Shown: one piece after another, positions 1 to 64,000 of the stretch
How positions within the stretch are numbered: the stretch's first letter is position 1
Layout: each line of letters begins with the position of its first letter
NCBI GenBank assembly: GCA_021613375.1
Contig: CM038716.1
Coordinates: 10,148,766-10,212,765, forward strand
From: Megaleporinus macrocephalus
Lineage: Eukaryota > Chordata > Actinopteri > Characiformes > Anostomidae
DNA length: 64,000 bases
Direction of reading: 5' to 3'
Program-made: the position numbers and the translations under genes
Notes under the pieces: generated by a model
Database searches by the model: none
Told to the model about the DNA's origin: nothing
The model's input: the letters and a program-made list of their open reading frames with translations, nothing else

Positions 1-56
1 AGCTGTTACCACATGGGCTCTATCTTTAGTTTCTGGTGCTCATTAGCTTTACTCAC

Positions 57-3000
57 TGAGATGCTGATCCCTCCCGGTGACGAGCTCCTCCAGGATGCTA
101 TCCAGGGCCTGGGTGATGATGTCGGCCCTGGACTCGTTGTTGTTCACTAGTTCATTTAGAAAGAATGAATGAAAACAGGTTCATGTTAACATTAAACATG
201 ATTCCTACTTTTACCTGCATGTTATTATGATGACTCACCTGGAGGTTCTCCGTGCACCTTACGGAGGTACATCAGGGCGTTAGCAGCCAGCTGGACCAAC
301 AGCCCTGTCAGCATCTCATCCACTGGATTCACATTGATACACACTGTCAGTTCTCCAGCTGCATCGTTTTCACTCTTCATATATTTGCACTGAGCGTTTC
401 CGGTACTTACCAAGCTGTGTGTACAGCGTGTCCAGGTGAGGGCAGAAGATGTTCCGCAGGGCCTCCACCTCTGCATCCACCCCCACCTGTACATCAGTTC
501 CTGGTTCTGAAAGGATCAGCAGATGTTCAGTCATATTATGGTGGGTTCTGATCATCAAGTCACATCACCAAATGCTGCCTGACTGAGTTTGAGTGGTCAT
601 CATCAACTGATATAGTTCTATCTGCTGGAATGGACCAACGCCAGCCTAGTCTATTCTGCTGCCCTGGTGTCAGAGAAGCTTCTGAGTTCTGTTACTCACC
701 CAGAGCCATGCTGGTGAATCCTCGGATGCTGTCCAGATGATGTGTTAACAGCACCCCGGCATCAGCAAACTCAGGAACCGTTCGCATCACCGCCAGCACC
801 TTGTTAACTGATTCAATAGAAATAAACATCAGCAGATGTTCAGCTGCTACATCATCACAGAACCTGGTGAAGATGCTGATCCAGATATTGAAGCTCTGAG
901 CATCAGCAGATCTGATATTTACTGACCCAGCCAACATGTTCATGTGGACCCCACATCAGTTAAAGACGGGCTGCCGATTGGGTCCACTTGGGGCAACCTG
1001 GTAGGGGCCCACAGAGATTTGTCCATTGCCTACATACGGGCCCTGTGTGTGTGTTAGTCAATGTGGACCAATAACTAGGGCCGATCCGGACTGCAAGATG
1101 GGCCCAAGTGAACAACCGACCATGTGAACAGTGCCATAACTGTGGGCCCCCAACAGTAGCCTAAGTGGGACTCACAACTGTAACCCAAACGGGGCAAAAA
1201 GCTATAACCCAGCGGGGCTCCATGTATCACCAATCATAAAGCCCCTACAAGCCCACGTGAAACCCATACAGGCCAGATAAGAACCATACGGGCCCCACAT
1301 GGACATGTTGGCTGTGAAGTCTTTAGTATCATGTTTAATATTTAGTGTTTATGTGCTTTACTCACTCAGGTGCTGGTCAGGTGAGAATGCGAGTCTCTGC
1401 AGCAGCACAAGAACTACCTCGCAGGCGGCCTCGATCAGGGCGTTGGTGTTGTTCGCTGATGTTTGTAGAAGATATTCAGTGAGAGTGAGATGTTGAGAGA
1501 TATTAAGATATTCATGTTTCTGCTTTTGTCTGAATGTAGTTTTTGTAGTGAGTTCTTCTTTTACTCACCCGGAGGGAACTTGAGGTTCTGCAGTTCAGAT
1601 ACCTGCATGTTCTCCAGCAGGTATCTGAATGCGTCTGCTGCAGAGATCACCCTGACGATGGTCATCATCTTCTGGTCGTCTTTCACATTAATAAACACTG
1701 TCAGTCGTCCAGCCGTGTTATTTTCATACTTGATATATTTCCACAGGTCATTTCCGTTACTTACCGAAGGACTGGACAGGGTGATCTACGTGGGAGGACA
1801 CTGGGGTCATAGGAGTCCCTACCCCCGTGTCCTCGACCTCATCCACGACCGGAGCTCCTGAGTCAGATTCTAAGAAGATCAGCAGATGTTCAGTAACGTT
1901 ATGGTCAGTTCTGATGATCCTTGTCAAGTCAGACAATAATGACATCACCAAATCTTAACTAGGGCCTGATGGAGTTCAGGTGGTCTTCATTAACTTCATT
2001 TATTACATCAACAGAACTGGACTGTGTGCTGGAGTGGACCACCAGCAGCCGGTTTGTTCTGGTAATGTTCTCCAGTGCTGTACAATTCAGAGTTAGCATG
2101 ATGCTAATAGTTTGTTCTGCTCACCCAGAGATGTGCTGGAGGTTGGAGGTTCCTCCAGCAGCGTTTCTCCTCTGGTCTCCTCCTCAGTGTGCTCGCAGGT
2201 CTCGGATTCTGTTTGAACATCAGTAAATATCAACATCTGTCCAGCTGGGTCGTTATCACAATATCCAACGTTTGATTCTTTTACTCACCAAGATGCTGGT
2301 CCACCACTTCTCCTCCAGCAACCTCCCTCGGCAGGATCTCCAGGAGCTCACTGGTCCCAGGAGCTCTCTGTTCTCCTGCTTTAATATTCATATCAGAATG
2401 AATAACATCAGCATTTGTTCTGTTAATGTAGAGATACAATGATGTTCATCATGATAACAGGTTCTCCTACTCACCCAGAGGGGTGCTAGAGGGTGGTCCA
2501 GCATCTTCAGACTGTAGCAGTTCAGGAGTCGTCTCGGTATTGACGCCTATTTAAATTAGAATTTAATCATTTAGACAGATTAGAGTTTATAATCAGTTCA
2601 ATTCCTGTTTTAATTAAACATGAAATAATATTAATAAATAAAATACATTCACCACAACTAACACAGAGTAACCTTAACATTAACCCTACACTAAACGCTA
2701 CCTAACATTAACATTAACCCTACACTTAACCTAACATTAACATTAACCCTACACTTAACCCTACCTAACCCTAACCCTACACTTAACCCTACCTAACATT
2801 AACATTAACCCTACACTTAACCCTACCTAACATTAACATTAACCTTACATTTAACCCTACCTAACATTAACATTAACCTTACACTTAACCCTACCTAACA
2901 TTAACCCTACACTTAACCCTACCTAACTTTAACCCTACACTTAACACTACCTAACATTAACATTAACCCTACCTAACATTAACATTCACCCTACACTTAA

Positions 3001-3910
3001 CCCTACCTAAAATTAACCCTACACTTAACACAACCAAACATTTACCCTACACTTAACCCTACCTAACCCTAACCCTACACTTAAACCTACCTAACATTAA
3101 CATTAACCCTACACTTAACCCTACCTAACATTAACCCTACACTTAACCCTACCTAACATCAACATTAACCCTACACTTAACCCTACCTAATATTAACATT
3201 AACCCTACACTCAACCCTACCTAACATTAACATTAACCCTAAACTTAACATTACCAAACATTAACATTAACCCTACAATTACATTAACTTAATATTAACT
3301 ACCTAACATTAACCCTAAACTTACATTAACCAAACATTAACTACTTAACATTAACATTAACCCTACACTTAAACTTACCTAACATTAACCTTGCACTTAA
3401 CCCTACATAACATTTACATTAATCCTTAACACTTACCCATTCACTCTCACATGTTAAAACATTTACTCTAATCTGATTGGTCAGTTCACACACTCTGTTC
3501 TGATTGGCCGTCCACCAGAGTGCTTAAAATTGGTTAAGCCCCCCTACACTAAAGTAAAGTGTATCCAGCGCTGAACTCTGATTTATTCAGTACGTACTGA
3601 GAATCACTGACTTGTTCAGTAACTACTGTTAATTCTAGTGACGTCGACTCATCTACTCACTCAGAAGCTGCTCAGTCTCTGTGCTGATGTCCACCGGCTC
3701 TGTCTCGGCTTCCTCCATCAGCACAGTCACGCTCTCCTGTAGTGGAGTCTCCCTCTCCTCCTCTTTCCTAGAGAAACTCCACTCTCTCTCTCTCCTCCTC
3801 CTCTTTCCTTTCTCTTTCTTCTCAATATGTTCTCCTTCCTTTCTGTGCTCCTCCTCCTCCTCACTCTCTCTATCTCCTCCTCCACAACAGCAAAACTTTC
3901 TCCAGCTCAT
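57..3910 (-). CDS. Tandem-array gene copy 1 (exons E1-E11, 3' end outside window)
   Basis: Unrecognised multi-exon gene. Coding exons on the minus strand, in order: E1 3661-3910, E2 2475-2546, E3 2289-2378, E4 2125-2208, E5 1765-1869, E6 1569-1679, E7 1366-1455, E8 700-807, E9 411-506, E10 239-322, E11 57-146. All are bounded by AG acceptors and GTGAG or GTAAG donors, and all internal junctions are phase 1, so the frame stays open throughout. The start is the first ATG (residues MSWRKFCCCGGG) with A at -3; an open frame further upstream has only a GTG. E1 encodes a Cys cluster, possibly palmitoylated (inference), then a highly charged Lys/Glu/Arg stretch. E2-E11 encode short, mostly helical-looking segments. 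Exons E12-E14 seen in the other copies would lie left of the window. Function is unknown; I do not assign a family. Confidence 0.72.
928..1314. mobile_element. MITE-like element in intron 7, copy 1
   Basis: A 387-bp non-coding element with imperfect terminal inverted repeats: left CAGCCAACATGTTCATGTGG, right end the reverse complement with one change (CCACATGGACATGTTGGCTG). The interior is rich in GGGCC blocks. No transposase and no clear target duplication were seen. It sits between E8 and E7 in every copy, so it was inserted before the array expanded. Confidence 0.7.
2655..3445. repeat. Telomere-like minisatellite in intron 1, copy 1
   Basis: Tandem array of about 34-35 bp units built from CCCTAC, CTTAACCCTACC and TAACATTAACATTAACC blocks, about 790 bp. 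Some units contain CCCTAACCCTA, the C-strand of the vertebrate telomere repeat, but most do not. It lies between E2 and E1. Confidence 0.85.
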
Positions 3911-3992
3911 TTTTCCTCCTCTCTCCTTCGACGCTTCAGCACAGACTGATTTCACACTGAGACGCGCGGAACTCCGTACATCTTCACCTCTA

Positions 3993-4022: not shown

Positions 4023-4211
4023 CAGCGGAATGTTGGACACTCTGTGGAGGTCTCTGTTGGTAAATGAATGTGAGGCTACAGTTAATGGGCTTCATGTAGT
4101 GAATCAGAGCGACGCTGCTGTGTTTACTCCTCACTTCTCAGATTTGAGCAGTTCATGTGAATCAGACTGACAATCAGACTCGCTGTAGCTTCATTTCATC
4201 ACCTCACAGAA

Positions 4212-8260: not shown

Positions 8261-9400
8261 CTAGGTTACCTGGTAAACAGGTGACTGCGACCTTACAATT
8301 CGGAGTGTAACGGCCCGGACCCTCCCCATGTCCATCTGCACCCCTTCCGTGCTGATGACATACCCATAAAAGGATATCCGGGACTGGTGGAATTCACACT
8401 TCTCTAATTCAACGAACAGCTGATGTGCACGCAGGCGTTCCAGGACCCGTCGAACGTGCGTGACATGCTCCACCGGATTCCTCGAGTATATGAGTATGTC
8501 ATCAATATACACAATCACCCATCGACCGAGCATGTATCTCACCTCGTTAATGAATGACTGGAACACGGAAGGGGCGTTTACCAGGTCATCGGCCATCACT
8601 AAGTACTCGTAGTGCCCACTATTGGTGACAAACGCGGTCTTCCACTCGTCTCCCTTACGAATACGAAAGAGGTTATAGGCAATACGGAGGGCCAACTTAG
8701 TGAAGACAGACGCCTGGTGCAGCTGTTCTAAGGTAGATGGAAAAAGGGGAAGCGGGTAGGAATACTTCACGGTAATTTCATTCAGCCCCCGGTAGTCGAT
8801 GCAAGGCCGGAGACCGCCGTCTTTCTTCCCAACGAGAAAGAACCCCGCGGCTGCAGGAGAAGTGGAGGTTCAAATGTATCCCCGCTCCAGGGCTTCCTGG
8901 ACGTACTGTTCCATCGCCTCAGTTTCTGGAATGGAGAGAGGGTAAACACGGCTTTTAGGAGGAAGAGTGCTGGGCAGCAACTCAATAGCACAATCCCAAG
9001 GCCTGTGAGGTGGAAACCGTTCAGCTCTAGCTCTATACATCGTGAAAGTCCAGGTACTCCCTCGGAATAGGTTGCCGAGGGTTCGTATCTGGGCTTTCAA
9101 TCGAGGTAGACAGCACCAAGGCCACTAAGCAATGAGCCTGGCAGTAGGGGCTCCAATGCGTGAGCTCCCCAGCGGACCAGGAGGATTAGGGGTTATGTTT
9201 AACCAGCCACGGATATCCCAGAATGAGGGGATGATCCGGGGATTCTATATTGTATGAAGAAATGGCCTCGGTGTGTATAGAGCCAACGATTAGTCTAGTA
9301 TTACCCGTCTCGTGAGGCACCAAGCCAGCGCCTAAAGGTCTCCCATCTGTGTCTTGAATGCGCAGCGCCACCTTCAGGAGCTGGACTGGGATATTATGTT
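8261..9400 (-). pseudogene. Protease and reverse transcriptase of the spacer 1 gypsy element
   Basis: Protease-side segment at 9186-9400 with HPLILGYPWLVKHNP. The linker at 8870-9100 carries [13 protein letters not shown] and [10 protein letters not shown] at 8261-8830 has [17 protein letters not shown] and the active site [12 protein letters not shown] with YIDD intact. Each piece is in a different frame or separated by stops, and the element ends after the RT thumb. Inactive. Confidence 0.8.
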
Positions 9401-12555: not shown

Positions 12556-15500
12556 GTTCTTTATTGCCATCTGTTTTCATGCTGACACCAGTCTGGTCTC
12601 TTACGTCCTCTGCCTCCACCACGCCTCCCTCTTCCTCCAAAACCGCCTCTCTCCCTTTGTGGAGGAGCGCATCCATCATTATGGCTGGGGCCGTGACTTC
12701 TCTCAGTGGCCTCCTCCTCCCACTGGTGTCTCGGCACCCTAGGTCGTCCCTGGTGCCGATGCGTCCACTGAACTTCGGACTGCTGCCTGAGTCGATGATG
12801 GCAGTCAGTCCGTGGACGAGGAGGAGGCTGCACCCCAGGAGAGTCTCTGTGAGCTACAAATGCAGATACACTCATGTTAGTATCAGTGAGTAGTTACTGT
12901 AGAAGAACTTTTGGTTTCTGAAGAACGTTTTAATAGAAGCTTCTATGTAAAACAGATGTGTGAGCATGAAGAACCTTGTAGAAGCTCCACTACCAGTGAA
13001 AGTTTATCTCTAGAGTCGTATATCCAACGCAAGATCTGAAGAAGTACCTTTTTTTGTAAGAGTGTATGTTCATGTAAACAGAATCTGAGATCTGTTTCTT
13101 TACTCACCCCGAGATGACTGAGGTGGCTGACGTGGTGGAGGTGGCTGAGGACGTTGAGGCAGCTGACGTGGTTGACGCTGCTGACGTTGCTGAGGCGTCT
13201 GAGGTGGCTGACGCAGATGACGTGGCTGAGGTGGCTGAGGTGGCTGAGGTGGATGGCGCGAATGACGTGGCTTAGATGGCTGAATTTTAGGTGCCATCCT
13301 CTTCATTTCATCCGTGCTGGACTCAGCCGAAGCTCCACCTTCCTCCACCTCCTCGGTCTGGTCTTGTGCTGTAACATGAAGAAACATCAACAGCTGTCCA
13401 GATCCATCACTGTGGTTGGACCTGACTCTGGTGTTTGTGTTGCTCGCATACAAACTGGACTCAGAGTCACCTCGTAAAACGAGCCCGAGCAGAATCAGTA
13501 TGAGTTCAGATGAATATTAATAACTAACTAATACATCCTGATGAAACATTAGCAGTTCTTTAGACATTCTCAGTTATTATGATGATGATCATCAAGCTAC
13601 TAGGTTCTTCTACTCACCCAGACATCCGCAGTAATATGTACGGGCGGAGTCCAGCAGAGGCGCCAGCACCTCCACAATGTCCCGGTAATCAGGCGCCGAG
13701 GACATCAAGCACAGGAAGTCGTGGACTGATTTAATAGAAATAAATATTAGCAGTTGTTCAGCTGAGTCTTCATCACAGAACCTAGTAAAGATGTTGATAC
13801 TGATATTGAAGACTTGAGGATCAGCTGATCTGATGTTACTACTTCTTAAGCTCTAAAGATGATCAGCTCTTTCTGCTTATATCAGTCTGAGATCCACCAG
13901 CTGTTCCCACATGGGCTCTATCTTTAGTTTCTGGTGCTCATTAGCTTTACTCACTGAGATGCTGATCCCTCCCGGTGACGAGCTCCTCCAGGATGCTATC
14001 CAGGGCCTGGGTGATGATGTCGGCCCTGGACTCGTTGTTGTTCACTAGTTCATTTAGAAAGAATGAATGAAAACAGGTTCATGTTAACATTAAACGTGAT
14101 TCCTACTTTTACCTGCATGTTATTATGATGACTCACCTGGAGGTTCTCTGTGCACCTTACGGAGGTACATCAGGGCGTTAGCAGCCAGCTGGACCAACAG
14201 CCCTGTCAGCATCTCATCCACTGGATTCACATTGATACACACTGTCAGTTCTCCAGCTGCATCGTTTTCACTCTTCATATATTTGCACTGAGCGTTTCCG
14301 GTACTTACCGAGCTGTGTGTACAGCGTGTCCAGGTGAGGGCAGAAGATGTCACGCAGGGCCTCCACCTCTGCATCCACCCCCACCTGTATCTCAGTTCCT
14401 GGTTCTGAAAGGATCAGCAGATGTTCAGTCATATTATGGTGGGTTCTGATCATCAAGTCACATCACCAAATGCTGCCTGACTGAGTTTGAGTGGTCATCA
14501 TCAACTGATATAGTTCTATCTGCTGGAATGGACCAACGCCAGCCTAGTCTATTTTGCTGCCCTGGTGTCAGAGAAGGTTCTGGGTTCTGTTACTCACCCA
14601 GAGTCATGCTGGTGAATCCTCGGATGCTGTCCAGATGATGTGTTAACAGCACCCCGGCATCAGCAAACTCAGGAACCGTTTGCATCACCGCCAGCACCTT
14701 GTTAACTGATTCAATAGAAATAAACATCAGCAGATGTTCAGCTGCTACATCATCACAGAACCTGGTGAAGATGCTGATCCTTATATTGAAGCTCTAAGTA
14801 TCAGCAGATCTGATATTTACTGACCCAGCCAACATGTTCATGTGGACCCCACATCAGTTAAAGACGGGCTGCCGATTGGGTCCACTTGGGGCAACCTGGT
14901 AGTAACTAGGGCCGATCCGGACTGCAAGATGGGCCCAAGTGAACAACCGACCATGTGAACAGTGCCATAACTGTGGGCCCCCAACAGTAGCCTAAGTGGG
15001 ACTCACAACTGTAACCCAAACGGGGCAAAAAGCTATAACCCAGCGGGGCTCCATGTATCACCAATCATAAAGCCCCTACAAGCCCACGTGAAACCCATAC
15101 AGACCAGATAAGAACCATACGGGCCCCACATGGACATGTTGTCTGTGAAGTCTTTAGTATCATGTTTAATATTTAGTGTTTATGTGCTTTACTCACTCAG
15201 GTGCTGGTCAGGTGAGAATGCGAGTCTCTGCAGCAGCACAAGAACTACCTCGCAGGCGGCCTCGATCAGGGCGTTGGTGTTGTTCGCTGATGTTTGTAGA
15301 AGATATTCAGTGAGAGTGAGATGTTGAGAGATATTAAGATATTCATGTTTCTGCTTTTGTCTGAATGTAGTTTTTGTAGTGAGTTCTTCTTTTACTCACC
15401 CGGAGGGAACTTGAGGTTCTGCAGTTCAGATACCTGCATGTTCTCCAGCAGGTATCTGAATGCGTCTGCTGCAGAGATCACCCTGACGATGGTCATCATC

Positions 15501-18325
15501 TTCTGGTCGTCTTTCACATTAATAAACACTGTCAGTCGTCCAGCCGTGTTATTTTCATACTTGATATATTTCCACAGGTCATTTCCGTTACTTACCGAAG
15601 GACTGGACAGGGTGATCTACGTGGGAGGACACAGGGGTCATAGGAGTCTCTACCCCCGTGTCCTCGACCTCATCCACGACCGGAGCTCCTGAGTCAGATT
15701 CTAAGAAGATCAGCATATGTTCAGTAACGTTATGGTCAGTTCTGATGATCCTTGTCAAGTCAGACAATAATGACATCACCAGATCTTAACTAGGGCCTGA
15801 TGGAGTTCAGGTGGTCTTCATTAACTTCATTTATTACATCAACAGAACTGGACTGTGTGCTGGAGTGGACCACCAGCAGCCGGTTTGTTCTGGTAATGTT
15901 CTCCAGTGCTGTACGATTCAGAGATAACATGATGGTAATGGTTTGTTCTGCTCACCCAGAGATGTGCTGGAGGTTGGAGGTTCCTCCAGCAGAGTTTCTC
16001 CTCTGGTCTCCTCCTCAGTGTGCTCGCAGGTCTGGGATTCTGTTTGAACATCAATAAATATCAACATCTGTCCAGCTGGGTCGTTATCACAATATCCAAC
16101 GTTTGATTCTTTTACTCACCAAGATGCTGGTCCACCACTTCTCCTCCAGCAACGTCCCTCGGCAGGATCTCCAGGAGCTCACTGGTCCCAGGAGCTCTCT
16201 GTTCTCCTGCTTTAATATTCATATCAGAATGAATAATATCAGCATATGTTCCATTAATGTAGAGATACAATGATGTTCATCATGATAACAGGTTCTCCTA
16301 CTCACCCAGAGGGGTGCTAGAGGGTGGTCCAGCATCTTCAGACTGTAGCAGTTCAGGAGTCGTCTCGGTATTGACGCCTATTTAATTTAGAATTGAATCA
16401 TTTAGACAGATTAGAGTTTATGATCAGTTCAATTCCTGTTTTAATTAAACATTAAATAATATTAATAAATAAAATACATTCACCACAACTAACACAGAGT
16501 AACCTTAACATTAACCCTACACTTAACCCTACCTAACATTAACATTAACCCTACACTTAACCCTACCTAACATTAACATTAACCCTACACTTAACACTAC
16601 CTAACATTAACCCTACACTTAACCCTACCTAACATTAACCCTACACTTAACCCTACCTAACATTAACATTAACCCTACACTTAACCCTATCTAACATTAA
16701 CCTTAACCATAAACTTAACCCTACCTAACATTAACCCTACACTTAACCCTACCTAACATTAACATTTAACCCTACACTTAACCCTACCTAACATTAACAT
16801 TACCCCACACTTAACACTACTTAACATTAACATTTAACCCTACAATTAACCCTACCTAACATTAACATTACCCCACACTTAACACTACCTAACATTAACA
16901 TTAACCCTACACTTAACCCTACCTAACATTAACCCTACACTTAACCCTACCTAACATTAACCCTACACTTAACCCTACCTAACATTAACATTAACCCTAC
17001 ACCTAACCTTACCTAATATTAACATTAACCCTTTATTTAACCCTACCTAACATTAACATTAACCCTACACTTAACCCTACCTAACATTAAAATTAACCCT
17101 ACACTTAACCCTCCCTAACATTAACATTAACCCTACACTTAACCCTACCTAACATTAACCCTACACATAACCCTACCTAACATTAACCCTAAACTTAACC
17201 CTACCTAACATTAACATTAACCCTTCACTTAACCCTCCCTAACATTAACATTAACCCTACACTTAACCCTACCTAACTTTTAAATTAACCCTACACTTAA
17301 CCCCAACTAACATTAGCCCTACACTCAACCCTACCTAACATTACCCCTACACTTAACCCTACCTAACATTAACATTAACTCTACCTAACATTAACCCTAC
17401 ACTTAACCCTGCCTAACATTAACCCTACACTTATCCTTACCTAACATAAACCTCAAACTCAACCCTACCTAACATTACCCCTACACTTAACCCTATCCAA
17501 CATTAACATTAACTCTACACTTAACCCTACCTAACATTAACCATACACTCAACCCTACCTAACATTAACCCTACACTTAACCGTACCTAACATTAACCTT
17601 ACACTTAACCCTACCTAACATTAACATTAACCCTACACCTAACCTTACCTAATATTAACATTAACCCTACACTTAACCCTTCCTAACATTAACACTAACC
17701 CTTAACACTTACCCATTCCCTCTTATGTCTTAAACCTAACATTTACCCTGCTCTGATTGGTAAGTTCACACACTCTGTTCTGATTGTTCAAACACCAGAG
17801 TGCTTGAAATTGGTAGCAGCATCGGCTCTAACTTCCACCCCTTCACTAATGTATTTAAGCCCCGCCTCCCGCTGAGCTTAATATGCTCCTAATGGTCAGT
17901 TCACACACTCTTTTCTGATTGGCCGACCACCTGAGTGCTTAAAATTGGTTAAGCCCCCCTACACTAAAGTAAAGTGTATCCAGCGCTGTACTCTGATTTA
18001 TTCAGTACGTACTGAGAATCACTGACTTGTTCAGTAACTACTGTTAATTATAGTGACGTCGACTCATCTACTCACTCAGAAGCTGCTCAGTCTCTGTGCT
18101 GATGTCCACCGGCTCTGTCTCGGCTTCCTCCATCAGCACAGTCACGCTCTCCTGTAGTGGAGTCTCCCTCTCCTCCTCTTTCCTAGAGAAACTCCACTCT
18201 CTCTCTCTCCTCCTCCTCTTTCCTTTCTCTTTCTTCTCAGTATGTTCTCCTTCCTTTCTGTGCTCCTCCTCCTCCTCACTCTCTCTATCTCCTCCTCCAC
18301 AACAGCAAAACTTTCTCCAGCTCAT
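12341..18325 (-). CDS. Tandem-array gene copy 2 (complete, 14 coding exons)
   Basis: Exons: E1 18076-18325, E2 16306-16377, E3 16120-16209, E4 15956-16039, E5 15596-15700, E6 15400-15510, E7 15197-15286, E8 14598-14705, E9 14309-14404, E10 14137-14220, E11 13955-14044, E12 13618-13725, E13 13108-13368, E14 12341-12846. The joined frame has 685 codons including the stop, with no internal stop and every junction GT-AG, phase 1. Order in the protein: Cys cluster and charged N-terminus (E1), three exon cassettes (E1-E4, E5-E8, E9-E12), a Pro/Gln/Arg-rich stretch (E13), then E14. E14 is read from the CAG acceptor at 12846 and its tail is encoded by a 19/20-bp minisatellite. A competing reading of E14 starts two bases later and ends at 12561 in an RGG-rich tail. 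Intron 7 carries a MITE and intron 1 a large minisatellite. Function unknown. Confidence 0.72.
14826..15145. mobile_element. MITE-like element in intron 7, copy 2 (internal deletion)
   Basis: Same element and position as in copy 1 but about 67 bp shorter: the GGGCC-rich block after 'ggcaacctggta' is missing. The right inverted repeat has one extra change (gttgtctg). Confidence 0.7.
16497..17735. repeat. Telomere-like minisatellite in intron 1, copy 2
   Basis: Same repeat family as in copy 1, about 1.24 kb, the longest of the four intron-1 arrays. Confidence 0.85.
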
Positions 18326-27960: not shown

Positions 27961-30900
27961 TTCTTTATAGCCATCTGTTGTCATGCTGACACCAGTCCGG
28001 TCTCTTACGTCCTCGGCCTCCACCACGCCTCCCTCTTCCTCCAAAACCGCCTCTCTCCCTTTGTGGAGGAGCGAATCCATCATTATGGCTGGGGCCGTGA
28101 CTTCTCTCAGTGGCCTCCTCCTCCCACTGGTGTCTCGGCACCCTAGGTCGTCCCTGGTGCCGATGCGTCCACTGAACTTCGGACTGCTGCCTGGGTCGAT
28201 GATGGCAGTCAGTCCGTGGACGAGGAGGAGGCTGCACCCCAGGAGAGTCTCTGTGAGCTACAAATGCAGATACACTCATGTTAGTATCAGTGAGTAGTTA
28301 CTGTAGAAGAACTTTTGGGTTCCTGAAGAACGTTTTAATAGAAGCTTCTATGTAAAACAGATGTGTGAGCATGAAGAACCTTGTAGAAGCTCCACTACCA
28401 GTGAAAGTTTATCTCTAGAGTCATATATCCAACCCAAGATCTGGAGAAGTACCTTTTTTTGTAAGAGTGTATGTTCATGTAAACAGAATCTGAGATCTGT
28501 TTTCTTTACTCACCCCGAGATGACTGAGGTGGCTGACGTGGTGGAGGTGGCTGAGGACGTTGAGGCAGCTGACGTGGTTGACGCTGCTGACGTTGCTGAG
28601 GCACCTGAGGCGTCTGAGGTGGCTGACGCGGCTGACGCAGATGACGTGGCTGAGGTGGCTGGCACAGATGACGTGGCTGAAGCTGCTGAGGTGGCTGAGG
28701 TGGATGACGTGGCTGAGGCGGCTGAATTTTAAGTGCCGTCCTCTTCATTTCATCCATGGTGGACTCAGCCGAAGCTCCACCTTCCTCCACCTCCTCGGTC
28801 TGGTCTCGTGCTGTAACATGAAAGAAACATCAACAGCTGTCCAGATCCATCACTGTGGTTGGACCTGACTCTGGTGTTTGTGTTGCTCGCATACAAACTG
28901 GACTCAGAGTCACCTCGTAAAACGAGCCCGAGCAGAATCAGTATGAGTTCAGATGAATATTAATAACTAACTAATAAATCCTGATGAAACATTAGCATTT
29001 CTTTAGACATTCTCAGTTATTATGATGATCATCAAGCTACTAAGTTCTTCTACTCACCCAGACATCCACAATAATATGCCCTGGCGGAGTCCAGCAGAGG
29101 CGCCAGCACCTCCACAATGTCCCGGTAATCAGGCGCCGAGGACATCAAGCACAGGAAGTCGTGGACTGATTTAATAGAAATAAATATTAGCAGTTGTTCA
29201 GCTGAGTCTTCATCACAGAACCTAGTAAAGATGGTGATACTGATATTGAAGACTTGAGGATCAGCTGATCTGATGTTTCTACTTCTTAAGCTCTAAAGAT
29301 GATCAGCTCTTTCTACTCATATCAGTCTGAGACCACCAGCTGTTACCACATGGGCTCTATCTTTAGTTTCTGGTGCTCATTAGCTTTACTCACTGAGATG
29401 CTGATCCCTCCCGGTGACGAGCTCCTCCAGGATGCTATCCAGGGCCTGGGCGATGATGTCGGCCCTGGACTCGTTGTTGTTCACTAGTTCATTTAGAAAG
29501 AATGAATGAAAACAGGTTCATGTTAACATTAAACATGATTCCTACTTTTACCTGCATGTTATTATGATGACTCACCTGGAGGTTCTCCGTGCACCTTACG
29601 GAGGTACATCAGGGCGTTAGCAGCCAGCTGGACCAACAGCCCTGTCAGCATCTCATCCACTGGATTCACATTGATACACACTGTCAGTTCTCCAGCTGCA
29701 TCGTTTTCACTCTTCATATATTTGCACTGAGCGTTTCCGGTACTTACCGAGCTGTGTGTACAGCGTGTCCAGGTGAGGGCAGAAGATGTTATGCAGAGCC
29801 TCCACCTCTGCATCCACCCCCACCTGTACATCAGTTCCTGGTTCTGAAAGGATCAGCAGATGTTCAGTCATATTATGGTGGGTTCTGATCATCAAGTCAC
29901 ATCACCAAATGCTGCCTGACTGAGTTTGAGTGGTCATCATCAACTGATATAGTTCTATCTGCTGGAATGGACCAACGCCAGCCTAGTCTATTCTGCTGCC
30001 CTGGTGTCAGAGAAGGTTCTGAGTTCTGTTACTCACCCAGAGTCATGCTGGTGAATCCTCGGATGCTGTCCAGATGATGTGTTAACAGCACCCCGGCATC
30101 AGCAAACTCAGGAACCGTTCGCATCACCGCCAGCACCTTGTTAACTGATTCAATAGAAATAAACATCAGCAGATGTTCAGCTGCTACATCATCACAGAAC
30201 CTGGTGAAGATGCTGATCCTGATATTGAAGCACTGAGTATCAGCACATCTGATATTTACTGACCCAGCCAACATGTTCATGTGGACCGCACATCAGTTAA
30301 AGACGGGCTGCCGATTGGGTCCACTTGGGGTAACCTGGTAGGGGCCCCCATTGATTTGTCAATTGCCTTCATACGGGCCCTGTGTGTGTTTGTCAATGTG
30401 GACCAATAACTAGGGCCGATCCGGACTGCAAGATGGGCCCAAGTGAACAACCGACCATGTGAACAGTGCCATAACTGTGGGCCCCCAACAGTAGCCTAAG
30501 TGGGACTCACAACTGTAACCCAAACGGGGCAAAAACTTATAACCCAGTGGGGCTCCATGTATCACCAATCATAAAGCCCCTACAAGCCCACGTGAAACCC
30601 ATACAGGCCAGATAAGAACCATACGGGCCCCACATGGACATGTTGGCTGTGAAGTATTTAGTATCATCTTTAATATTTAGTGTTTATGTGCTTTACTCAC
30701 TCAGGTGCTGGTCAGGTGAGAATGTGAGTCTCTGCAGCAGCACAAGAACTACCTCGCAGGCGGCCTCGATCAGGGCGTTGGTGTTGTTCGCTGATGTTTG
30801 TAGAAGATATTCAGTGAGAGTGAGATGTTGAGAGATATTAAGATATTCATGTTTCTGCTTTTGTCTGAATGTAGTTTTTGTAGTGAGTTCTTCTTTTACT

Positions 30901-41404: not shown

Positions 41405-42635
41405 TTTCAGTGCAGCAAACTCACTCCAGAGGTTCAGTGAGGATCTCTGAATGATCCAATGTTGACCTAAATGACTGATGATGATAAATAGAATCCATCT
41501 GTGTGGAATCAGATCTCCGTATGAAAGCACCTGCTCTGTGATCATCTCAGAGTTCTGTTAAAAGCCCAGAGAGCATCATGAAGACCAAAGAACACACCAG
41601 GCACCTCCCAGATACTGTTGTGGAGAAGTTTAAAGCTGGATTTGGATACAATAAGTTTTCCCAAGCTTTAAAGATGCTTTAGAGATGCAGCCAAGAGGCC
41701 CATGATCACTCTGAACTGCAGAGATCTACAGCTGAGGTGGGAGAATCTGTCCATAGGACAACAATCAGTCGTACACTGCACAGATCTGGTCTTTATGGAA
41801 GAGTGGCAAGAAGAAAGCCATTTCTCAAAGATATCCATAAAAAGTCTCATTTAAAGTTTACCACAAGCCACCTGGGAAACACACCAAACATGTGGAAGAA
41901 GGTGCTCTGGTCAGATGAAACCAAAATCGAACTTTTTGGCCACAATGCAGCTCATCACCCTGAACACACCATCTCCACTGTCAAACATGGTGGTGGTGGC
42001 AGCATCATGGTTTGGGCTGCTTTTCTTCAGCAGGGATGGAGAAGATGGTTAAACTTGATGGGAAGATGGATGGAGACAAACACAGGACCATTCTAGAAGA
42101 AAACGTGTTGGAGTCTGCAGAAGACCTGAGACTGGGACAGAGATGTATCTTCCAACAAGACAATGATCCAAAACATAAAGCAAAATCTACAATGGACTGG
42201 TTCACAAATAAACATATCCAGGTGTTAGAATGGCCAAGTCAAAGTCCAGACCTGAATCCAATCGAGAATCTGTGGAAAGATCTGAAAACTGCTTTTCACA
42301 AATGCTCTCCATCCAACCTCACTGAGCTCCAGCTGTTTTGAAGGACCAATGGGCAAAAAACTCAGTCTCTTGATGTGAGACCTGCTGCTGTAATCGCAGC
42401 CAAAGGTGGCGCTACAAAGTATTAACAAATAATTTTGCACGCCCAAATTTTCAGTTTTTTATTTTTAACAAAAGTTTAAAATATCCAATAAATTTCGTTC
42501 CACTTCACGATTGTGTCCCACTTGTTGTTGATTCTTTACAAAAAATAAAAATTTCATATCTTTATGTTTGATGCCTGAAATGTCGAAAAAGGTTGAAATG
42601 TTCAAGGGGGCCGAATACTTTTGCAAGGCACTGTA
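41405..42635 (+). mobile_element. Tc1-like transposon, broken, spacer 3
   Basis: Same insertion. Start codon ATG at 41578 is kept, but the DNA-binding part after 'SQALK' is deleted and joined to 'RDAAKRPMI'. The catalytic half is the best preserved of the three: [29 protein letters not shown], although in two frames. Confidence 0.85.
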
Positions 42636-47029: not shown

Positions 47030-47784
47030 AATGTACTACACTAATAAAGCCTGTAGACTCTCAGCAGATCATTCAGTAACATACCTGAACACTGTATTAC
47101 ACTAATAAAGCCTGTAGACTCTCAGCAGATCATTCAGTAACATACCTGAACACTGTATTACACTAATAAAGCCTGTAGACTCTCAGCAGATCATTCAGTA
47201 ACATACCTGAACACTGTATTACACAAATAAAGCCTGTAGACTCTCAGCAGATCGTTCAGTAACATACCTGAACACTGTATTACACTAATAAAGCCTGTAG
47301 ACTCTCAGCAGATCATTCAGTAACATACCTGAACACTGTATTACACTAATAAAGCCTGTAGACTCTCAGCAGATCATTCAGTAACATACCTGAACACTGT
47401 ATTACACTAATAAAGCCTGTAGACTCTCAGCAGATCATTCAGTAACATACCTGAACACTGTATTACACTAATAAAGCCTGTAGACTCTCAGCAGATCATT
47501 CAGTAACATACCTGAACACTGTATTGTACTAATAAAGCCTGTAGACTCTCAGCAGATCATTCAGTAACATACCTGAAAACTGTATTGCACTAATAAAGCC
47601 TGTAGACTCTCAGCAGAACGTTCAGTAACATACCTGAACACTGTATTGCACTAATAAAGCCTGTAGACTCTCAGCAGAAGGTTTAGTAACATACCTGAAA
47701 ACTGTATTACACTAATAAAGCCTGTAGACTCTCAGCAGAAGGTTTAGTAACATACCTGAAAACTGTATTACACTAATAAAGAAT
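47030..47784. repeat. 61-bp minisatellite, spacer 3
   Basis: About twelve units of the same repeat. Confidence 0.9.
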
Positions 47785-48122: not shown

Positions 48123-51100
48123 GTTCTTTATAGCCCTCTGTTGTCATGCTGACACCAGTCCGGTCTCTTACGTCCTCTGCCTCCACCACGCCTCCCTCTT
48201 CCTCTAAAACCGCCTCTCTCCCTTTGTGGAGGAGCGCATCCATCATTATGGCTGGGGCCGTGACTTCTCTCAGTGGCCTCCTCCTCCCACTGGTTTCTCG
48301 GCACCCCAGGTCGTCCCTGGTGCCGATACGTCCACTGAACTTCGGACTGCTGCCTGGGTCGATGATGGCAGTCAGTCCGTGGATGAGGAGGAGGCTGCAC
48401 CCCAGGAGAGTCTCTGTGAGCTACAAATGCAGATACACTCATGTTAGTATCAGTGAGTAGTTACTGTAGAAGAACTTTTAGTTTCCTGAAGAACGTTGTA
48501 ATGGAAGCTTCTATGTAAAACAGATGTGTGAGCATGAAGAACCTTGTAGAAGCTCCACTACCAGTGAAAGTTTATCTCTAGAGCCGTATATCCAACCCAA
48601 GATTTGAGGAAGTCCCTTTATTTGTAAGAGTGTATATTCATGTAAACAGAATCTGAGATCTGTTTTCTTTACTCACCCCGAGATGACTGAGGTGGCTGAC
48701 GTGGTGGAGGTGGCTGAGGACGTTGAGGCAGCTGACGTGGTTGACGCTGCTGACGTTGCTGAGGCGTCTGAGGCGTCTGACGCGGCTGACGCAGGTGACG
48801 TGGCTGAGGTGGCTGGCACAGATGACGTGGCTGAAGCTGCTGAGGTGGCTGAGGTGGATGACGTGGCTTAGATGGCTGAGCCGGTTGTGGTGGCTGAGGC
48901 GGCTGAATTTTAAGTGCCGTCCTCTTCATTTCATCCATGGTGGACTCAGCCGAAGCTCCACCTTCCTCCACCTCCTCTGCCAGGTCTCGTGCTGTAACAT
49001 GAAGAAACATCAACAGCTGTTCAGATCCATCACTGTGGTTGGACCTGACTCTGGTGTTTGTGTTGCTCGCATACAAACTGGACTCAGAGTCACCTCGTAA
49101 AACGAGCCCGAGCAGAATCAGTATGAGTTCAGATGAATATTAATAACTAACTAATAAATCCTGATGAAACATTAGCAGTTCTTTACACATTCTCAGTTAT
49201 TATGATGATCATCAAGCTACTAGGTTCTTCTACTCACCCAGACATCCACAGTAATATGTACGGGCGGAGTCCAGCAGAGGCGCCAGCACCTCCACAATGT
49301 CCCGGTAATCAGGCGCCGAGGACATCAAGCACAGGAAGTCGTGGACTGATTTAATAGAAATAAATATTAGCAGTTGTTCAGCTGAGTCTTCATCACAGAA
49401 CCTAGTAAAGATGGTGATACTGATATTGAAGACTTGAGGATCAGCTGATCTGATGTTACTACTTCTTAAGCTCTAAAGATGATCAGCTCTTTCTGCTCAT
49501 ATCAGTCTGAGACCACCAGCTGTTACCACATGGGCTCTATCTTTAGTTTCTGGTGCTCATTAGCTTTACTCACTGAGATGCTGATCCCTCCCGGTGACAA
49601 GCTCCTCCAGGATGCTATCCAGGGCCTGGGCGATGATGTCGGCCCTGGACTCGTTGTTGTTCACTAGTTCATTTAGAAAGAATGAATGAAAACAGGTTCA
49701 TGTTAACATTAAACATGATTCCTACTTTTACCTGCATGTTATTATGATGACTCACCTGGAGGTTCTCCGTGCACTTTACGGAGGTACATCAGGGCGTTAG
49801 CAGCCAGCTGGACCAACAGCCCTGTCAGCATCTCATCCACTGGATTCACATTGATACACACTGTCAGTTCTCCAGCTGCATCGTTTTCACTCTTCATATA
49901 TTTGCACTGAGCGTTTCCGGTACTTACCGAGCTGTGTGTACAGACTGTCCAGGTGAGGGTAGAAGATGTCACGCAGAGCCTCCACCTCTGCATCCACCCC
50001 CACCTGTAGATCAGTTCCTGGTTCTGAAAGGATCAGCAGATGTTCAGTCATATTATGGTGGGTTCTGATCATCAAGTCACATCACCAAATGCTGCCTGAC
50101 TGAGTTTGAGTGGTCATCATCAACTGATATAGTTCTATCTACTGGAATGGACCAACGCCAGCCTAGTCTATTCTGCTGCCCTGGTGTCAGAGAAGGTTCT
50201 GGGTTCTGTTACTCACCCAGAGTCATGCTGGTGAATCCTCGGATGCTGTCCAGATGATGTGTTAACAGCACCCCGGCATCAGCAAACTCAGGAACCGTTC
50301 GCATCACCGCCAGCACCTTGTTAACTGATTTAATAGAAATAAACATCAGCAGATGTTCAGCTGCTACATCATCACAGAACCTGGTGAAGATGCTGATCCT
50401 GATATTGAAGCTCTGAGTATCAGCAGATCTGATATTTACTGACCCAGCCAACATGTTCATGTGGACCCCACATCAGTTAAAGACGGGCTGCCGATTGGCT
50501 CCACTTGGGGCAACCTGGTAGGGGCCCACAGAGATTTGTCCATTGCCTTAATACGGGCCCTGTGTGTGTTTGTCAATGTGGACCAATAACTAGGGCCGAT
50601 CCGGACTGCAAGATGGGCCCAAATGAACAACCGACCATGTGAACAGTGCCATAATTGTGGGCCCCCAACAGTAGCCTAAGTGGGACTCACAACTGTAACC
50701 CAAACGGGGCAAAAAGTTATAACCCAGTGGGGCTCCATGTATCACCAATCATAAAGCCCCTACAAGCCCACGTGAAACCCATACAGGCCAGATAAGAACC
50801 ATACGGGCCCCACATGGACATGTAAGCTGTGAGGTATTTAGTATGATCTTTAATATTTAGTGTTTATGTGCTTTACTCACTCAGGTGCTGGTCAGGTGAG
50901 AATGCGAGTCTCTGCAGCAGCACAAGAACTACCTCGCAGGCGGCCTCGATCAGGGCGTTGGTGTTGTTTGCTGATGTTTGTAGAAGATATTCAGTGAGAG
51001 TGAGATGTTGAGAGATATTAAGATATTCATGTTTCTGCTTTTGTCTGAATGTAGTTTTTGTAGTGAGTTCTTCTTTTACTCACCCGGAGGGAACTTGAGG

Positions 51101-53733
51101 TTCTGCAGTTCAGATACCTGCATGTTCTCCAGCAGGTATCTGAATGCGTCTGCTGCAGAGATCACCCTGACGATGGTCATCATCTTCTGGTCGTCTTTCA
51201 CATTAATAAACACTGTCAGTCGTCCAGCCGTGTTATTTTCATACTTGATATATTTCCACAGGTCATTTCCGTTACTTACCGAAGGACTGGACAGTGTGAT
51301 CTACGTGGGAGGACACTGGGGTGTTAGGAGTCTCTACCCCCGTGTCCTCGACCTCATCCACGACCGGAGCTCCTGAGTCAGATTCTAAAAAGATCAGCAG
51401 ATGTTCAGTAACGTTATGATCAGTTCTGATGATCCTTGTCAAGTCAGAAAATGATGACATCACCAAATCTTAACTAGTGCCTGATGGAGTTCAGGTGGTC
51501 TTCATTAACTTCATTTATTACATCAACAGAACTGGACAGTGTGCTGGAGTGGACCACCAGCAGCCGGTTTGTTCTGGTAATGTTCTCCAGTGCTGTATAA
51601 TTCAGAGTTAGCATGATGCTAATAGTTTGTTTTGCTCACCCAGAGATGTGCTGGAGGTTGGAGGTTCCTCCAGCAGCGTTTCTCCTCTGGTCTCCTCCTC
51701 AGTGTGCTCACAGGTCTGGGCTTCTGTTTGAACATCAGTAAATATCAACATCTGTCCAGCTGGGTCGTTATCACAATATCCAACGTTTGATTCTTTTACT
51801 CACCAAGATGCTGGTCCACCACTTCTCCTCCAGCAACGTCCCTCGGCAGGATCTCCAGGAGCTCACTGGTCCCAGGAGCTCTCTGTTCTCCTGCTTTAAT
51901 ATTCATATCAGAATGAATAACATCAGCATTTGTTCTGTTAATGTAGAGATACAATGATGTTCATCATGATAACAGGTTCTCCTACTCACCCAGAGGGGTG
52001 CTAGAGGGTGGTCCAGCATCTTCAGACTGTAGCAGTTCAGGAGTCGTCTCGGTATTGACGCCTATTTAATTTAGAATTCATTCATTAAGACAGATTAGAG
52101 TTTATAATCAGTTCAATTCCTGTTTTTATTAAACATTAAATAATATTAATAAATAAAATACATTCACTACAACTAACACAGAGTAACCTTAACATTAACC
52201 CTACACTTAACCCTACCTAACATTAACATTAACCCTACACTTAACCTAACATTAACATTAACCCTACACTTAACCCTACATAACCCTAACCCTACACTTA
52301 ACCCTACCTAACATTAACATTAACCCTACACTTAACCCTACCTAACCCTAACCCTACAGTTAAACCTACCTAACATTAACATTAACCCTACACTTAACCC
52401 TACTTAACCCTAACCCTACACTTAAACCTACCTAAGATTAACATTAACCCCACACTTAACCCTACCTAACATTAATATTAACCCTACACCTAACCCTACC
52501 TAACACTAACAATAACCCTACATTTAACCCTACCTAACATTAACATTAACCCTACACCTAACCCTACCTAACATTAACATTAACCCTACACTTAATCCTA
52601 CCTAACATTAACATTAACCCTACACTTAACCCTACCTAACATTAACATTAACCCTACACTTAACCCTACCTAACATTAACATTAACCCTACACTAAACCC
52701 TACCTAACCCTAACCCTACACCTAAACCTACCTAACATTAACCCTAGACTTAACCCTACCTAACATTAACTTTAACCCTACACTTAAAACTACCTAACAT
52801 TAACATTAATCCTACACTTAACCCTACCTAACATTAACAATAACCCTACACTAAACCCTACCTAACCCTAACCCTACACTTAAACCTACCTAACATTAAC
52901 CCTACACTTAACCCTACCTATCATTAATTTTAACCCTACACTTAACCCTACCTAACATTAACATTAATCCTACACTTAACCCTACCTAACATTACATTAA
53001 CCCTACACTTAACCCTACCTAACGTTAACATTAATCCTACACTTAACCCTACCTAACATTAACCATAAACTTAAACCTACCTAACCTTAACCCTACACTT
53101 AACCCTACCTAACATTAACATTAACCCTAAACTTACCGCTACCTAACATGAACCCTAAACTTAACCCTGCCTAACATAAACATTAACCCTACACTTAACC
53201 CTACCTAACATTAACATTAACCCTACACTTAACCCTACCTAACATTAACATTAACCCTACACTTAACCCTACCTAACATTAATATTAACCCTGCTCTGAT
53301 TTGTCAGTTCATACACTCTGTTCTGATTGGCCGACCACCAGAGTTCTTAAAATTGGTTAAGCCCCCCTACACTAAAGTAAAGTGTATCCAGCGCTGTACT
53401 CTGATTTATTCAGTACGTACTGAGAATCACTGACTTGTTCAGTAACTACTGTTAATTCTAGTGACGTCGACTCATCTACTCACTCAGAAGCTGCTCAGTC
53501 TCTGTGCTGATGTCCACCGGCTCTGTCTCGGCTTCCTCCATCAGCACAGTCACGCTCTCCTGTAGTGGAGTCTCCCTCTCCTCCTCTTTCCTAGAGAAAC
53601 TCCACTCTCTCTCTCTCCTCCTCCTCTTTCCTTTCTCTTTCTTCTCAATATGTTCTCCTTCCTTTCTGTGCTCCTCCTCCTCCTCACTCTCTCTATCTCC
53701 TCCTCCACAACAGCAAAACTTTCTCCAGCTCAT
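47980..53733 (-). CDS. Tandem-array gene copy 4 (complete, 14 coding exons)
   Basis: Exons: E1 53484-53733, E2 51990-52061, E3 51804-51893, E4 51640-51723, E5 51280-51384, E6 51084-51194, E7 50881-50970, E8 50217-50324, E9 49928-50023, E10 49756-49839, E11 49574-49663, E12 49238-49345, E13 48677-48991, E14 47980-48413. The frame is open for 679 codons including the stop. E13 is the longest copy (315 bases) through extra Pro/Gln/Arg repeats. In E14 several differences from copies 2 and 3 are silent in the frame used here (12th-codon-region CGC/CGT, CTA/CTG, TTG/TTA) but change amino acids in the alternative RGG frame. All donors and acceptors are preserved. The gene is followed on its 3' side by the A-type spacer carrying the endogenous retrovirus. 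Confidence 0.72.
50445..50829. mobile_element. MITE-like element in intron 7, copy 4
   Basis: Same element and site; full length, with the right inverted repeat altered to 'tgtaagctg'. Confidence 0.7.
52183..53293. repeat. Telomere-like minisatellite in intron 1, copy 4
   Basis: Same repeat family, about 1.1 kb, with several CCCTAACCCTAC units. Confidence 0.85.
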
Positions 53734-61690: not shown

Positions 61691-62063
61691 GTGTGTTCAG
61701 GGTTGATAAATGAGTGTTAAGGTAGAGAATGTACTTATGGTTTAGTGGACCAGGACAATGGAGAGACTACATGAGTTACTAATTACCATAATTGTGCTAC
61801 AAGTATCAGTTTTTGGGGGTCAGTGAGTGTAAAAGCTGTAAAAGTGTGTGGTTGATTATTAACTGCAGTAGATTCTAATAAAAGACTCGTATGACTGTAA
61901 AGCTGAAAACTTGTAGAACTGATTAACACTAAACACACACTTTCTAAACTGGATCAGGTGGAGTTTAGAATCAGAACATATGTTTACACATAGATACATA
62001 CAAACAAAGATTAAACAATATTATATATTAATATATACATCACTGCATAGTTACAGTTTCCAA

Positions 62064-62694
62064 ACACTGTATTACACTAATAAAGCCTGTAGACTCTCAG
62101 CAGATCATTCAGTAACATACCTGAACACTGTATTACACTAATAAAGCCTGTAGACTCTCAGCAGATCATTCAGTAACATACCTGAACACTGTATTACACT
62201 AATAAAGCCTGTAGACTCTCAGCAGATCATTCAGTAACATACCTGAACACTGTATTACACTAATAAAGCCTGTAGACTCTCAGCAGATCATTCAGTAACA
62301 TACCTGAACACTGTATTACACTAATAAAGCCTGTAGACTCTCAGCAGATCATTCAGTAACATACCTGAACACTGTAATACACTAATAAAGCCTGTAGACT
62401 CTCAGCAGATCATTCAGTAACATACCTGAACACTGTACTACACTAATAAAGCCTGTAGACTCTCAGCAGATCATTCAGTAACATACCTGAACACTGTATT
62501 ACACTAATAAAGCCTGTAGACTCTCAGCAGATCATTCAGTAACATACCTGAACACTGTATTACACTAATAAAGCCTGTAGACTCTCAGCAGATCATTCAG
62601 TAACATACCTGAACACTGTATTACACTAATAAAGCCTGTAGACTCTCAGCAGAACGTTCAGTAACATACCTGAACACTGCATTACACTAATAAA
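62064..62694. repeat. 61-bp minisatellite, spacer 4
   Basis: About ten units of the same repeat. Confidence 0.9.
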
Positions 62695-62756
62695 GAATGA
62701 AGAGTAGTAGGATATTTTAATTTTTTTTATTATTTTTATATTTGTTGATGTCTGGG

Positions 62757-63134
62757 TTTGGGGAGCGAGGGTTAGGGTGAGTTGAAAAAGGTTGGGTTTG
62801 ATTGTAGGGGGTTAAGGTTTATTGTAGGAGGTTTGGGTTGATTCAGGAGGTTGAGGTTGATTTAGGAGGTTGAGGTTTATTCAGGAGGTTGAGGTTGATT
62901 TAGGAGGTTGAGGTTGATTAAGGAGGTTGAGGTTGATTTAGGAAGTTGGGGTTGATTGTTGGAGGTAGGGTTTGATTGTAGGAGGTAGGGTTTGATTGTT
63001 GAAGGTAGGGTTTGATTGTTGGAGGTAGGCTTTGATTGTTGGAGGTAGGGTTTGATTGTTGGAGGTAGGGTTTGATTGTTGGAGGTAGGGTTTATTGTAG
63101 GAGGGTTGGGGTTTATTGTAGGAGGTTGGGGTTG
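62757..63134. repeat. 19/20-bp minisatellite overlapping E14 of copy 5
   Basis: Same repeat; gives copy 5 the longest tail, ending at 62877. Confidence 0.88.
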
Positions 63135-63984
63135 TTCTTTATAGCCATCTGTTGTCATGCTGACACCAGTCCGGTCTCTTACGTCCTCTGCCTCCACCAC
63201 GCCTCCCTCTTCCTCCAAAACCGCCTCTCTCCCTTTGTGGAGGAGTGAATCCATCATTATGGCTGGGGCCGTGACTTCTCTCAGTGGCCTCCTCCTCCCA
63301 CTGGTGTCTCGGCACCCTAGGTCGTCCCTGGTGCCGATGCGTCCACTGAACTTCGGACTGCTGCCTGGGTCGATGATGGCAGTCAGTCCGTGGACGAGGA
63401 GGAGGCTGCACCCCAGGAGAGTCTCTGTGAGCTACAAATGCAGATACACTCATGTTAGTATCAATGAGTAGTTACTGTAGAAGAACTTTTGGGTTCCTGA
63501 AGAACGTTTTAATGGAAGCTTCTATGTAAAACAGATGTGTGAGCATGAAGAACCTTGTAGAAGCTCCACTACCAGTGAAAGTTTATCTCTAGAGTCATAT
63601 ATCCAACCCAAGATCTGAAGAAGTACCTTTTTTTGTAAGAGTGTATGTTCATGTAAACAGAATCTGAGATCTGTTTTCTTTACTCACCCCGAGATGACTG
63701 AGGTGGCTGACGTGGTGGAGGTGGCTGAGGACGTTGAGGCAGCTGACGTGGTTGACGCTGCTGACGTTGCTGAGGCACCTGAGGCGTCTGAGGTGGCTGA
63801 CGCGGCTGACGCAGATGACGTGGCTGAGGTGGCTGGCACAGATGACGTGGCTGAAGCTGCTGAGGTGGCTGAGGTGGATGACGTGGCTGAGGCGGCTGAA
63901 TTTTAAGTGCCGTCCTCTTCATTTCATCCATGGTGGACTCAGCCGAAGCTCCACCTTCCTCCACCTCCTCGGTCTGGTCTCGTG
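62877..63984 (-). CDS. Tandem-array gene copy 5 (last two exons only)
   Basis: Only E13 (63688-63984, 297 bases) and E14 (62877-63424, 548 bases) lie in the window; the rest lies to the right. E13 has the same length as in copy 3 and the same Pro/Gln/Arg pattern. E14 has the longest minisatellite-encoded tail of the array and stops at 62877. Sequence and spacer type both group this 3' end with copy 3 rather than with copies 2 or 4. Confidence 0.68.
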
Positions 63985-64000
63985 CTGTAACATGAAGAAA

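What the first reader, a model, noticed from the sequence alone, without database searches (positions are those of the whole stretch)
1..64000. Head-to-tail array of an unrecognised 14-exon gene, with at least three copies open from start to stop
Seen: five copies in one orientation. Copies 2, 3 and 4 each give one frame of 685, 659 and 679 codons over 14 exons, with all GT-AG junctions kept and exons E2-E12 identical in length. Inference: selection has kept them open despite heavy repeat invasion, so this may be an expanded, fast-changing gene family.
Basis: partly seen in the sequence, partly recalled or inferred. Interest (0 to 1): 0.85.

Follow-up and report, generated by a model that had tools for sequence, protein, structure and literature searches.

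The report
Large array of an uncatalogued gene
The window is part of a 16-copy tandem array of a 14-exon, apparently protein-coding gene that matched no protein family in the libraries searched, and many related copies lie elsewhere in the same genome, so it looks like a large, unnamed gene family that selection keeps readable.

Summary
On the minus strand, copies 2, 3 and 4 each give one frame over 14 GT-AG exons. In the genome the array has 16 head-to-tail copies in 264 kb. 13 of 16 are open from start to stop; two share one exon deletion and one has a frameshift.

Constraint is real but loose. Frameshifting indels: 1 in 1578 exon columns, 15 in 2311 intron columns (about 10 expected in exons). 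No splice site is broken, exons vary less than introns, codon ML omega is 0.73; missense/silent alone is not significant.

The family is larger than the window. Short probes to E1, E6 and E12 give 79, 92 and 84 hits: arrays on C7, C15, C19 and C26, hits on twelve other contigs. Distinct changes between subfamilies favour third codon positions (20 of 31), and the 73 E12 matches listed have no stop.

No relative was found in the Pfam, NCBIfam, PDB and protein-database searches made. Best reading: an uncatalogued, expanded coding family. Its function is only inferred.

The parts
57..3910 (-). Copy 1 (array copy T04), E1-E11; E12-E14 lie left of the window
   Evidence: completed from the genome (624 aa, open)
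12561..18325 (-). Copy 2 (T05), complete 14-exon gene, 612 aa: E1 18325-18076, E2 16377-16306, E3 16206-16120, E4 16039-15956, E5 15700-15596, E6 15510-15400, E7 15286-15197, E8 14705-14598, E9 14404-14309, E10 14220-14137, E11 14044-13955, E12 13725-13618, E13 13368-13108, E14 12853-12561
27965..32663 (-). Copy 3 (T06), complete, 624 aa; E1 32663-32414 to E14 28257-27965
48128..53733 (-). Copy 4 (T07), complete, 630 aa; E1 53733-53484 to E14 48420-48128
63139..63984 (-). Copy 5 (T08), E13-E14 only; the rest lies right of the window; this copy lacks the end of E5 through E7
28514..28810 (-). E13 of copy 3: Pro/Gln/Arg-rich exon on a 9-base repeat; its length differs between copies in multiples of 9 bases
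29058..31204 (-). Core E5-E12 of copy 3: a four-exon cassette (E5-E8) duplicated as E9-E12, phase-1 introns throughout
41683..42338 (+). Tc1/mariner-like transposase pieces between copies 3 and 4
   Evidence: HTH_Tnp_Tc3_2 and DDE_3
8264..8869 (-). Reverse transcriptase piece between copies 1 and 2
   Evidence: RVT_1

Best explanation
SHOWN: The window is the middle of a 16-copy head-to-tail array of a 14-exon gene model whose introns are all phase 1. The array is one of many belonging to a family with probe hits on 16 contigs of this genome, and the reading frame has been kept against frameshifts and splice-site loss, as expected of a protein-coding gene. INFERRED: Arrays grew by unequal crossing-over of 13-24 kb units, with block duplications and inversions between arrays. 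The protein is probably an intracellular, non-enzymatic adaptor: a Cys-cluster, charged N-terminus, a mildly hydrophobic acidic core made of two diverged four-exon repeats, and a very basic Pro/Gln/Arg and RGG-like tail that could bind RNA or chromatin. High copy number would give dose or variety, most likely in germline conflict or in defence. Which of these is not decided.
For: 16 copies mapped. 13 of 16 open from start to stop, T13 two codons short; frameshifting indels in exons 1 of 1578 columns, in introns 15 of 2311, expected 10.2 in exons, P 0.0004; no splice-site defect in introns 2-13 (48 dinucleotide positions, P 0.011); variable columns 100/1578 in exons against 209/2311 in introns, p 0.002; omega 0.73 against 1, 2dlnL 4.0. 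The model frame of E1-12 has the lowest missense/silent ratio of the three frames (0.66, p 0.08, no nonsense; others 1.12 with 2 and 1.68 with 7 nonsense changes). Genome-wide 79, 92 and 84 probe hits, reversed-pattern controls 0; 140 loci by a merging rule, 87 with two or more probes in exon order. Distinct changes between subfamilies at third codon positions 20 of 31, p 0.0004. 73 of 73 E12 matches listed without a stop (my count; the list is cut and 150 of 1061 candidates were scored). Composition of the parts.
Against: No transcript evidence was available. Missense/silent across the array is not significantly below neutral (0.72, p 0.11) and is 1.01 in E1-4 and 0.97 in E14 (0.45, p 0.055, in E5-8). 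Three of 16 copies are damaged or shortened. Three C7 matches to E6 carry two stops (one TAG, one TAA) whose place in or beyond the exon I could not settle. Introns may be more indel-prone by their sequence. Concerted evolution makes the copies non-independent. The function is inferred from composition only: no domain or structure match.
Confidence: 0.78

Rival explanations
1. A recent neutral segmental duplication of a gene that is already dead or dispensable; the copies are open only because they are young.
For: Window copies differ by only 1.2-1.9% in exons and 1.5-2.6% in introns, with pairwise dN/dS 0.50-1.62; few intron indels per pair; missense/silent 0.72 not significant.
Against: About 10 frameshifts expected in 16 copies, 1 seen; no splice-site loss; third-position bias between subfamilies; stop-free E12 matches on ten contigs.
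Confidence: 0.12
2. A family that is already annotated in vertebrate databases (as an uncharacterised or named protein), unseen here because the protein collections at hand may hold few vertebrate proteins. This does not exclude the best explanation; it bears on novelty.
For: Searches of a collection drawn from public genomes and metagenomes found nothing at E up to 10 or up to 1, so vertebrate coverage may be poor; a family this large would normally receive automatic gene models (general knowledge).
Against: No Pfam match at E up to 1 for the spliced protein, none in NCBIfam above chance, none in the PDB.
Confidence: 0.5
3. Amplification by germline conflict (meiotic drive or sex-linked dose competition), like Slx/Sly in mice. 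A cause of the best explanation, not an alternative to it.
For: Many high-identity arrays in both orientations on C15; a CRE palindrome 90 bases before the ATG in 16 of 16 copies, a motif that I recall from germ-cell promoters; low-complexity basic tail.
Against: Probe hits on 16 contigs rather than one chromosome pair; the CRE lies in a stretch conserved as a whole (mismatch 0.66%); no expression or sex-linkage data.
Confidence: 0.2
4. A mobile element, or a host gene carried by one.
For: Copies on many contigs; transposon pieces between copies.
Against: The RT, RNase H and Tc1 pieces lie between genes, in upstream sequence that only 4-9 of the 15 other copies share with copy T05; copies sit in head-to-tail arrays with their introns, 13-24 kb apart, the pattern of segmental duplication. 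Ends of scattered single copies were not examined.
Confidence: 0.04

Closest known systems
Mouse ampliconic germline families (Slx/Sly, Laidx; PMC7263670, abstract and introduction seen)
   Same: Amplified, near-identical protein-coding copies in large amplicons; the title calls the Laidx protein intrinsically disordered.
   Different: Here probe hits lie on 16 contigs; no sex linkage or testis expression is known; many phase-1 mini-exons; no sequence relation was tested.
Large teleost immune expansions (finTRIM, PMC2657112, search listing and start of abstract only; NLR families recalled)
   Same: Strong duplication of a gene family within one lineage; here, too, arrays on several contigs.
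   Different: No NACHT, RING, B-box, B30.2 or other Pfam domain in the spliced protein at E up to 1.
Accelerated segment switch in exons (ASSET) of snake toxins (PMC2711939, passages seen)
   Same: Introns flanking duplicated exons are more alike than the exons, clearly for E5/E9 and E8/E12.
   Different: Seen only between the two internal cassettes, and hardly for E6/E10; between array copies introns vary more than exons; omega between cassettes is 0.48-0.64, not above 1.

Membership tests
Protein-coding tandem gene family | Several copies with intact, phase-consistent frames and splice sites | tested here: met
   13 of 16 copies full-length; 0 splice-site defects
Protein-coding tandem gene family | Signature of coding constraint | tested here: met
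   Frameshift deficit P 0.0004, third-position bias p 0.0004; array-level missense/silent alone p 0.11
Protein-coding tandem gene family | Spliced transcripts | not testable with these tools
   No RNA data; a search for intron-less retrocopies was asked nine times and never answered
NLR or finTRIM immune expansion | NACHT, RING, B-box or B30.2 domain | tested here: not met
   No Pfam match at E up to 1
Ampliconic germline (drive-type) family | High-identity arrays, also in opposite orientation | tested here: met
   C15 arrays at 10.1-10.36 (-), 10.88-10.94 (+), 11.38-11.41 (-), 11.50-11.53 (+), 12.24-12.29 (-), 12.43-12.47 Mb (+)
Ampliconic germline (drive-type) family | Germ-cell expression, sex linkage or transmission bias | not testable with these tools
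   No expression, sex or cross data
ASSET-type accelerated exon evolution | Exons diverge faster than introns | tested here: inconclusive
   True between cassettes for E5/E9 and E8/E12, weak for E7/E11, absent for E6/E10; false between the 16 copies
ASSET-type accelerated exon evolution | Excess of replacement changes (omega above 1) | tested here: not met
   Omega 0.48-0.64 between cassettes, 0.73 in the array

The most novel reading that the evidence does not exclude
A vertebrate lineage carries a previously unnamed protein family of around 100 or more gene copies with no known domain, built from phase-1 mini-exons. It spread by array duplication and inversion over many chromosomes and is kept in frame because copy number itself is selected, as in a dose-driven germline or host-parasite conflict.
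Probability: 0.2. Interest if true: 0.85.

Novelty: new member of a known kind. Interest (0 to 1): 0.58.

Why it matters
A coding family with 92 hits to one of its exons in one genome (three mismatches allowed, so a lower bound) and no catalogued domain is unusual. If expressed, it is a fresh case for asking what drives rapid gene amplification: defence, germline conflict or dose. The family gives natural replicates: arrays of different divergence on several contigs, with internal exon cassettes and built-in intron controls. If it is already annotated elsewhere as uncharacterised, the copy number, the gene model and the tests for constraint remain useful.

Tried and rejected
No relative was found in three protein searches, in viral contigs, in a phage-collection search with window 22000-25000, in the PDB (best E 0.7, entry KWOCA_73) or in NCBIfam (E 0.12, far below its cut-off). 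Open frames at both flanks of the array were read by eye only; they look repeat-derived, with a transposase-like one on the left, and gave no anchor gene. Seven literature searches (listings, plus passages of PMC13431229) showed no paper on this family, which is weak evidence because no name or species is known.
Full report
WHAT IS IN THE WINDOW. A self-comparison shows long head-to-tail repeats, with long pieces at 92-98% identity. The gene lies on the minus strand. Reading copy 2 base by base gave 14 exons: a start exon with the peptide MSWRKFCCCGGG, eleven short exons of 72-111 bases, a Pro/Gln/Arg-rich exon on a 9-base repeat and a basic Gly/Arg-rich last exon. Mapping these exons to the other copies gave three complete genes and two cut by the window's edges. 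Every intron is GT-AG and phase 1. The proteins are 612, 624 and 630 aa.

THE ARRAY. The window's own genome is held (1.28 Gb, 100 contigs; the window is C15:10148766-10212765). Fetching the surroundings (333 kb with the window) showed 16 copies, T01-T16, all on the minus strand, from 10093276 to 10357344 and 13.1-23.5 kb apart. No exon hit of useful length was found in the 35 kb to the right (to 10392000) or in the readable part of the left flank (from 10059001; 17,500 bases there read N). 13 of 16 copies are open from start to stop (579-630 aa, T13 ending two codons early). T08 and T09 share a deletion from the end of E5 through E7; skipping the damaged exon would keep the frame (522 aa). 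T01, at the array's end, has one extra base in E4.

IS IT KEPT OPEN BY SELECTION? The window copies alone cannot say. Pairwise NG86 dN/dS over E1-E11 is 0.50-1.62, and introns themselves have only 1-5 indels per pair. With 16 copies (E13 left out because it is repetitive, intron 1 left out because it holds a minisatellite), 18 intron indels, 15 of them not multiples of three, lie in 2311 columns, against one in 1578 exon columns. About 10 frameshifting ones would be expected in the exons, P 0.0004. No intron of introns 2-13 has lost GT or AG (48 positions, P 0.011). Exon columns vary less than intron columns (6.3% against 9.0%, p 0.002). Nonsense: only one codon, in T13, two codons before the end, with two changed bases; 3.6 such changes were expected. 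Against my reading: missense to silent is 65 to 38, 0.72 of neutral, p 0.11; by part it is 1.01 (E1-4), 0.45 (E5-8, p 0.055), 0.71 (E9-12) and 0.97 (E14). Codon ML omega is 0.73, 2dlnL 4.0 against omega 1 on the same tree with kappa held at 3.2 in the null. As a frame control, the model frame of E1-12 has the lowest missense/silent ratio (0.66, p 0.08, 0 nonsense) against 1.12 (2 nonsense) and 1.68 (7) in the other frames; in E14 the three frames do not differ clearly. The copies are related and probably convert each other, so these probabilities are guides only.

THE FAMILY. A 2.4-kb core query found further arrays on C15 (10.88-12.47 Mb, both orientations, 93-97%) and on C26 (90-91%); only 40 of 855 first-look candidates were scored. 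Three short probes with up to three mismatches gave 79 hits for E1, 92 for E6 and 84 for E12, with none for the reversed-pattern controls. Merging hits on the same strand within 9 kb and in exon order gives 140 loci on 16 contigs, 87 of them with two or more probes: C7 44, C15 34, C26 22, C19 16, others 1-4. A gene with long introns could be counted twice, so the firmer lower bound is the 92 hits of E6. Between subfamilies the distinct changes within the E6 and E12 probes fall at third codon positions in 8 of 11 and 12 of 20 cases, jointly 20 of 31, p 0.0004. E6 replacements are all among Met, Ile and Val; E12 has also less conservative ones, such as Glu to Gly or Val and Pro to Ser, Thr or Ala. 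A protein search scored 150 of 1061 candidates. The 73 matches to E12 in its list (my count; the list is cut) are all free of stops, on C1, C2, C7, C12, C15, C19, C24, C26, C39 and C96. Matches to E6 and E11 mostly show stops; for the C15 copies these fall, by the query ends, where the match runs past the exon into the intron (my reading). For three C7 matches to E6 with two stops each I could not tell.

INTERNAL STRUCTURE. E5-E8 and E9-E12 are two copies of one four-exon cassette; the protein repeats are 32% identical. Three of five intron pairs align over 83-142 bases at 78-86% identity; the other two align over only 24-25 bases. The exons, aligned by codon, have pN 0.47-0.49 and pS 0.60-0.65. 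In gapped alignments the exon falls clearly below its flanks for E5/E9 (0.66 against 0.78-0.79) and E8/E12 (0.62 against 0.79-0.83), little for E7/E11 and not for E6/E10. Because silent sites are strongly diverged too, this is not plain positive selection. It could be exon replacement, conversion of introns, or alignment trouble at this distance, and I leave it open. By composition the first 84 residues are charged with a Cys cluster, the core is mildly hydrophobic and acidic (pI 4.4) and the tail is very basic (pI 11.6). A CRE palindrome lies 90 bases before the ATG in 16 of 16 copies (19 occurrences in 333 kb); its name and link to germ-cell promoters are recalled, and the whole stretch is conserved.

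WHAT WAS NOT FOUND. No Pfam match at E up to 1 for the spliced protein, none in the PDB for the core (profile of the two repeats, best E 0.7), nothing credible in NCBIfam, nothing in three protein-database searches (one search scored 7994 candidates), none in viral contigs. Reverse transcriptase, RNase H and Tc1 pieces lie between the genes.

HOW IT MAY WORK. Shown: a constrained, multi-exon, much amplified family that behaves as coding sequence. Inferred: growth by unequal crossing-over. The function as an intracellular adaptor with a nucleic-acid-binding tail, and the cause of amplification (defence or germline conflict), are informed guesses, perhaps one in four and one in five. The chief doubt about novelty is that vertebrate annotation could not be searched here.

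Noticed in passing
window 2669-3435, 16500-17711, 32009-32225, 52184-53292: Intron 1 of each copy holds a minisatellite (units near 28, 34 and 62 bases, consensus TAACATTAACCCTACACTTAACCCTACC) whose length differs between copies and which coincides with the strong GC skew there.
   Followed up: no
E5-E8 against E9-E12, e.g. window 31204-29058: Introns next to E5/E9 and E8/E12 are more alike than these exons, silent sites included, the reverse of what the 16 copies show.
   Followed up: partly
C15:10213975-10214983 and 10227546-10228553: T08 and T09 share a deletion from within E5 through E7; in both the E5 donor is lost.
   Followed up: partly
C15:10357700-10392000: The right flank of the array is dense in micro- and minisatellite-like sequence with long spurious open frames (read by eye).
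   Followed up: no
C7:28.7-49.5 Mb: All 37 E1 probe hits on C7 have a Trp codon (TGG) in place of the first Cys codon after MSWRKF, in scattered groups over 20 Mb.
   Followed up: no
window 11100-12097, 27032-27420, 47027-47781, 62063-62695: A 61-base minisatellite between genes, 6 to 16 units per copy, units 95-98% alike.
   Followed up: no
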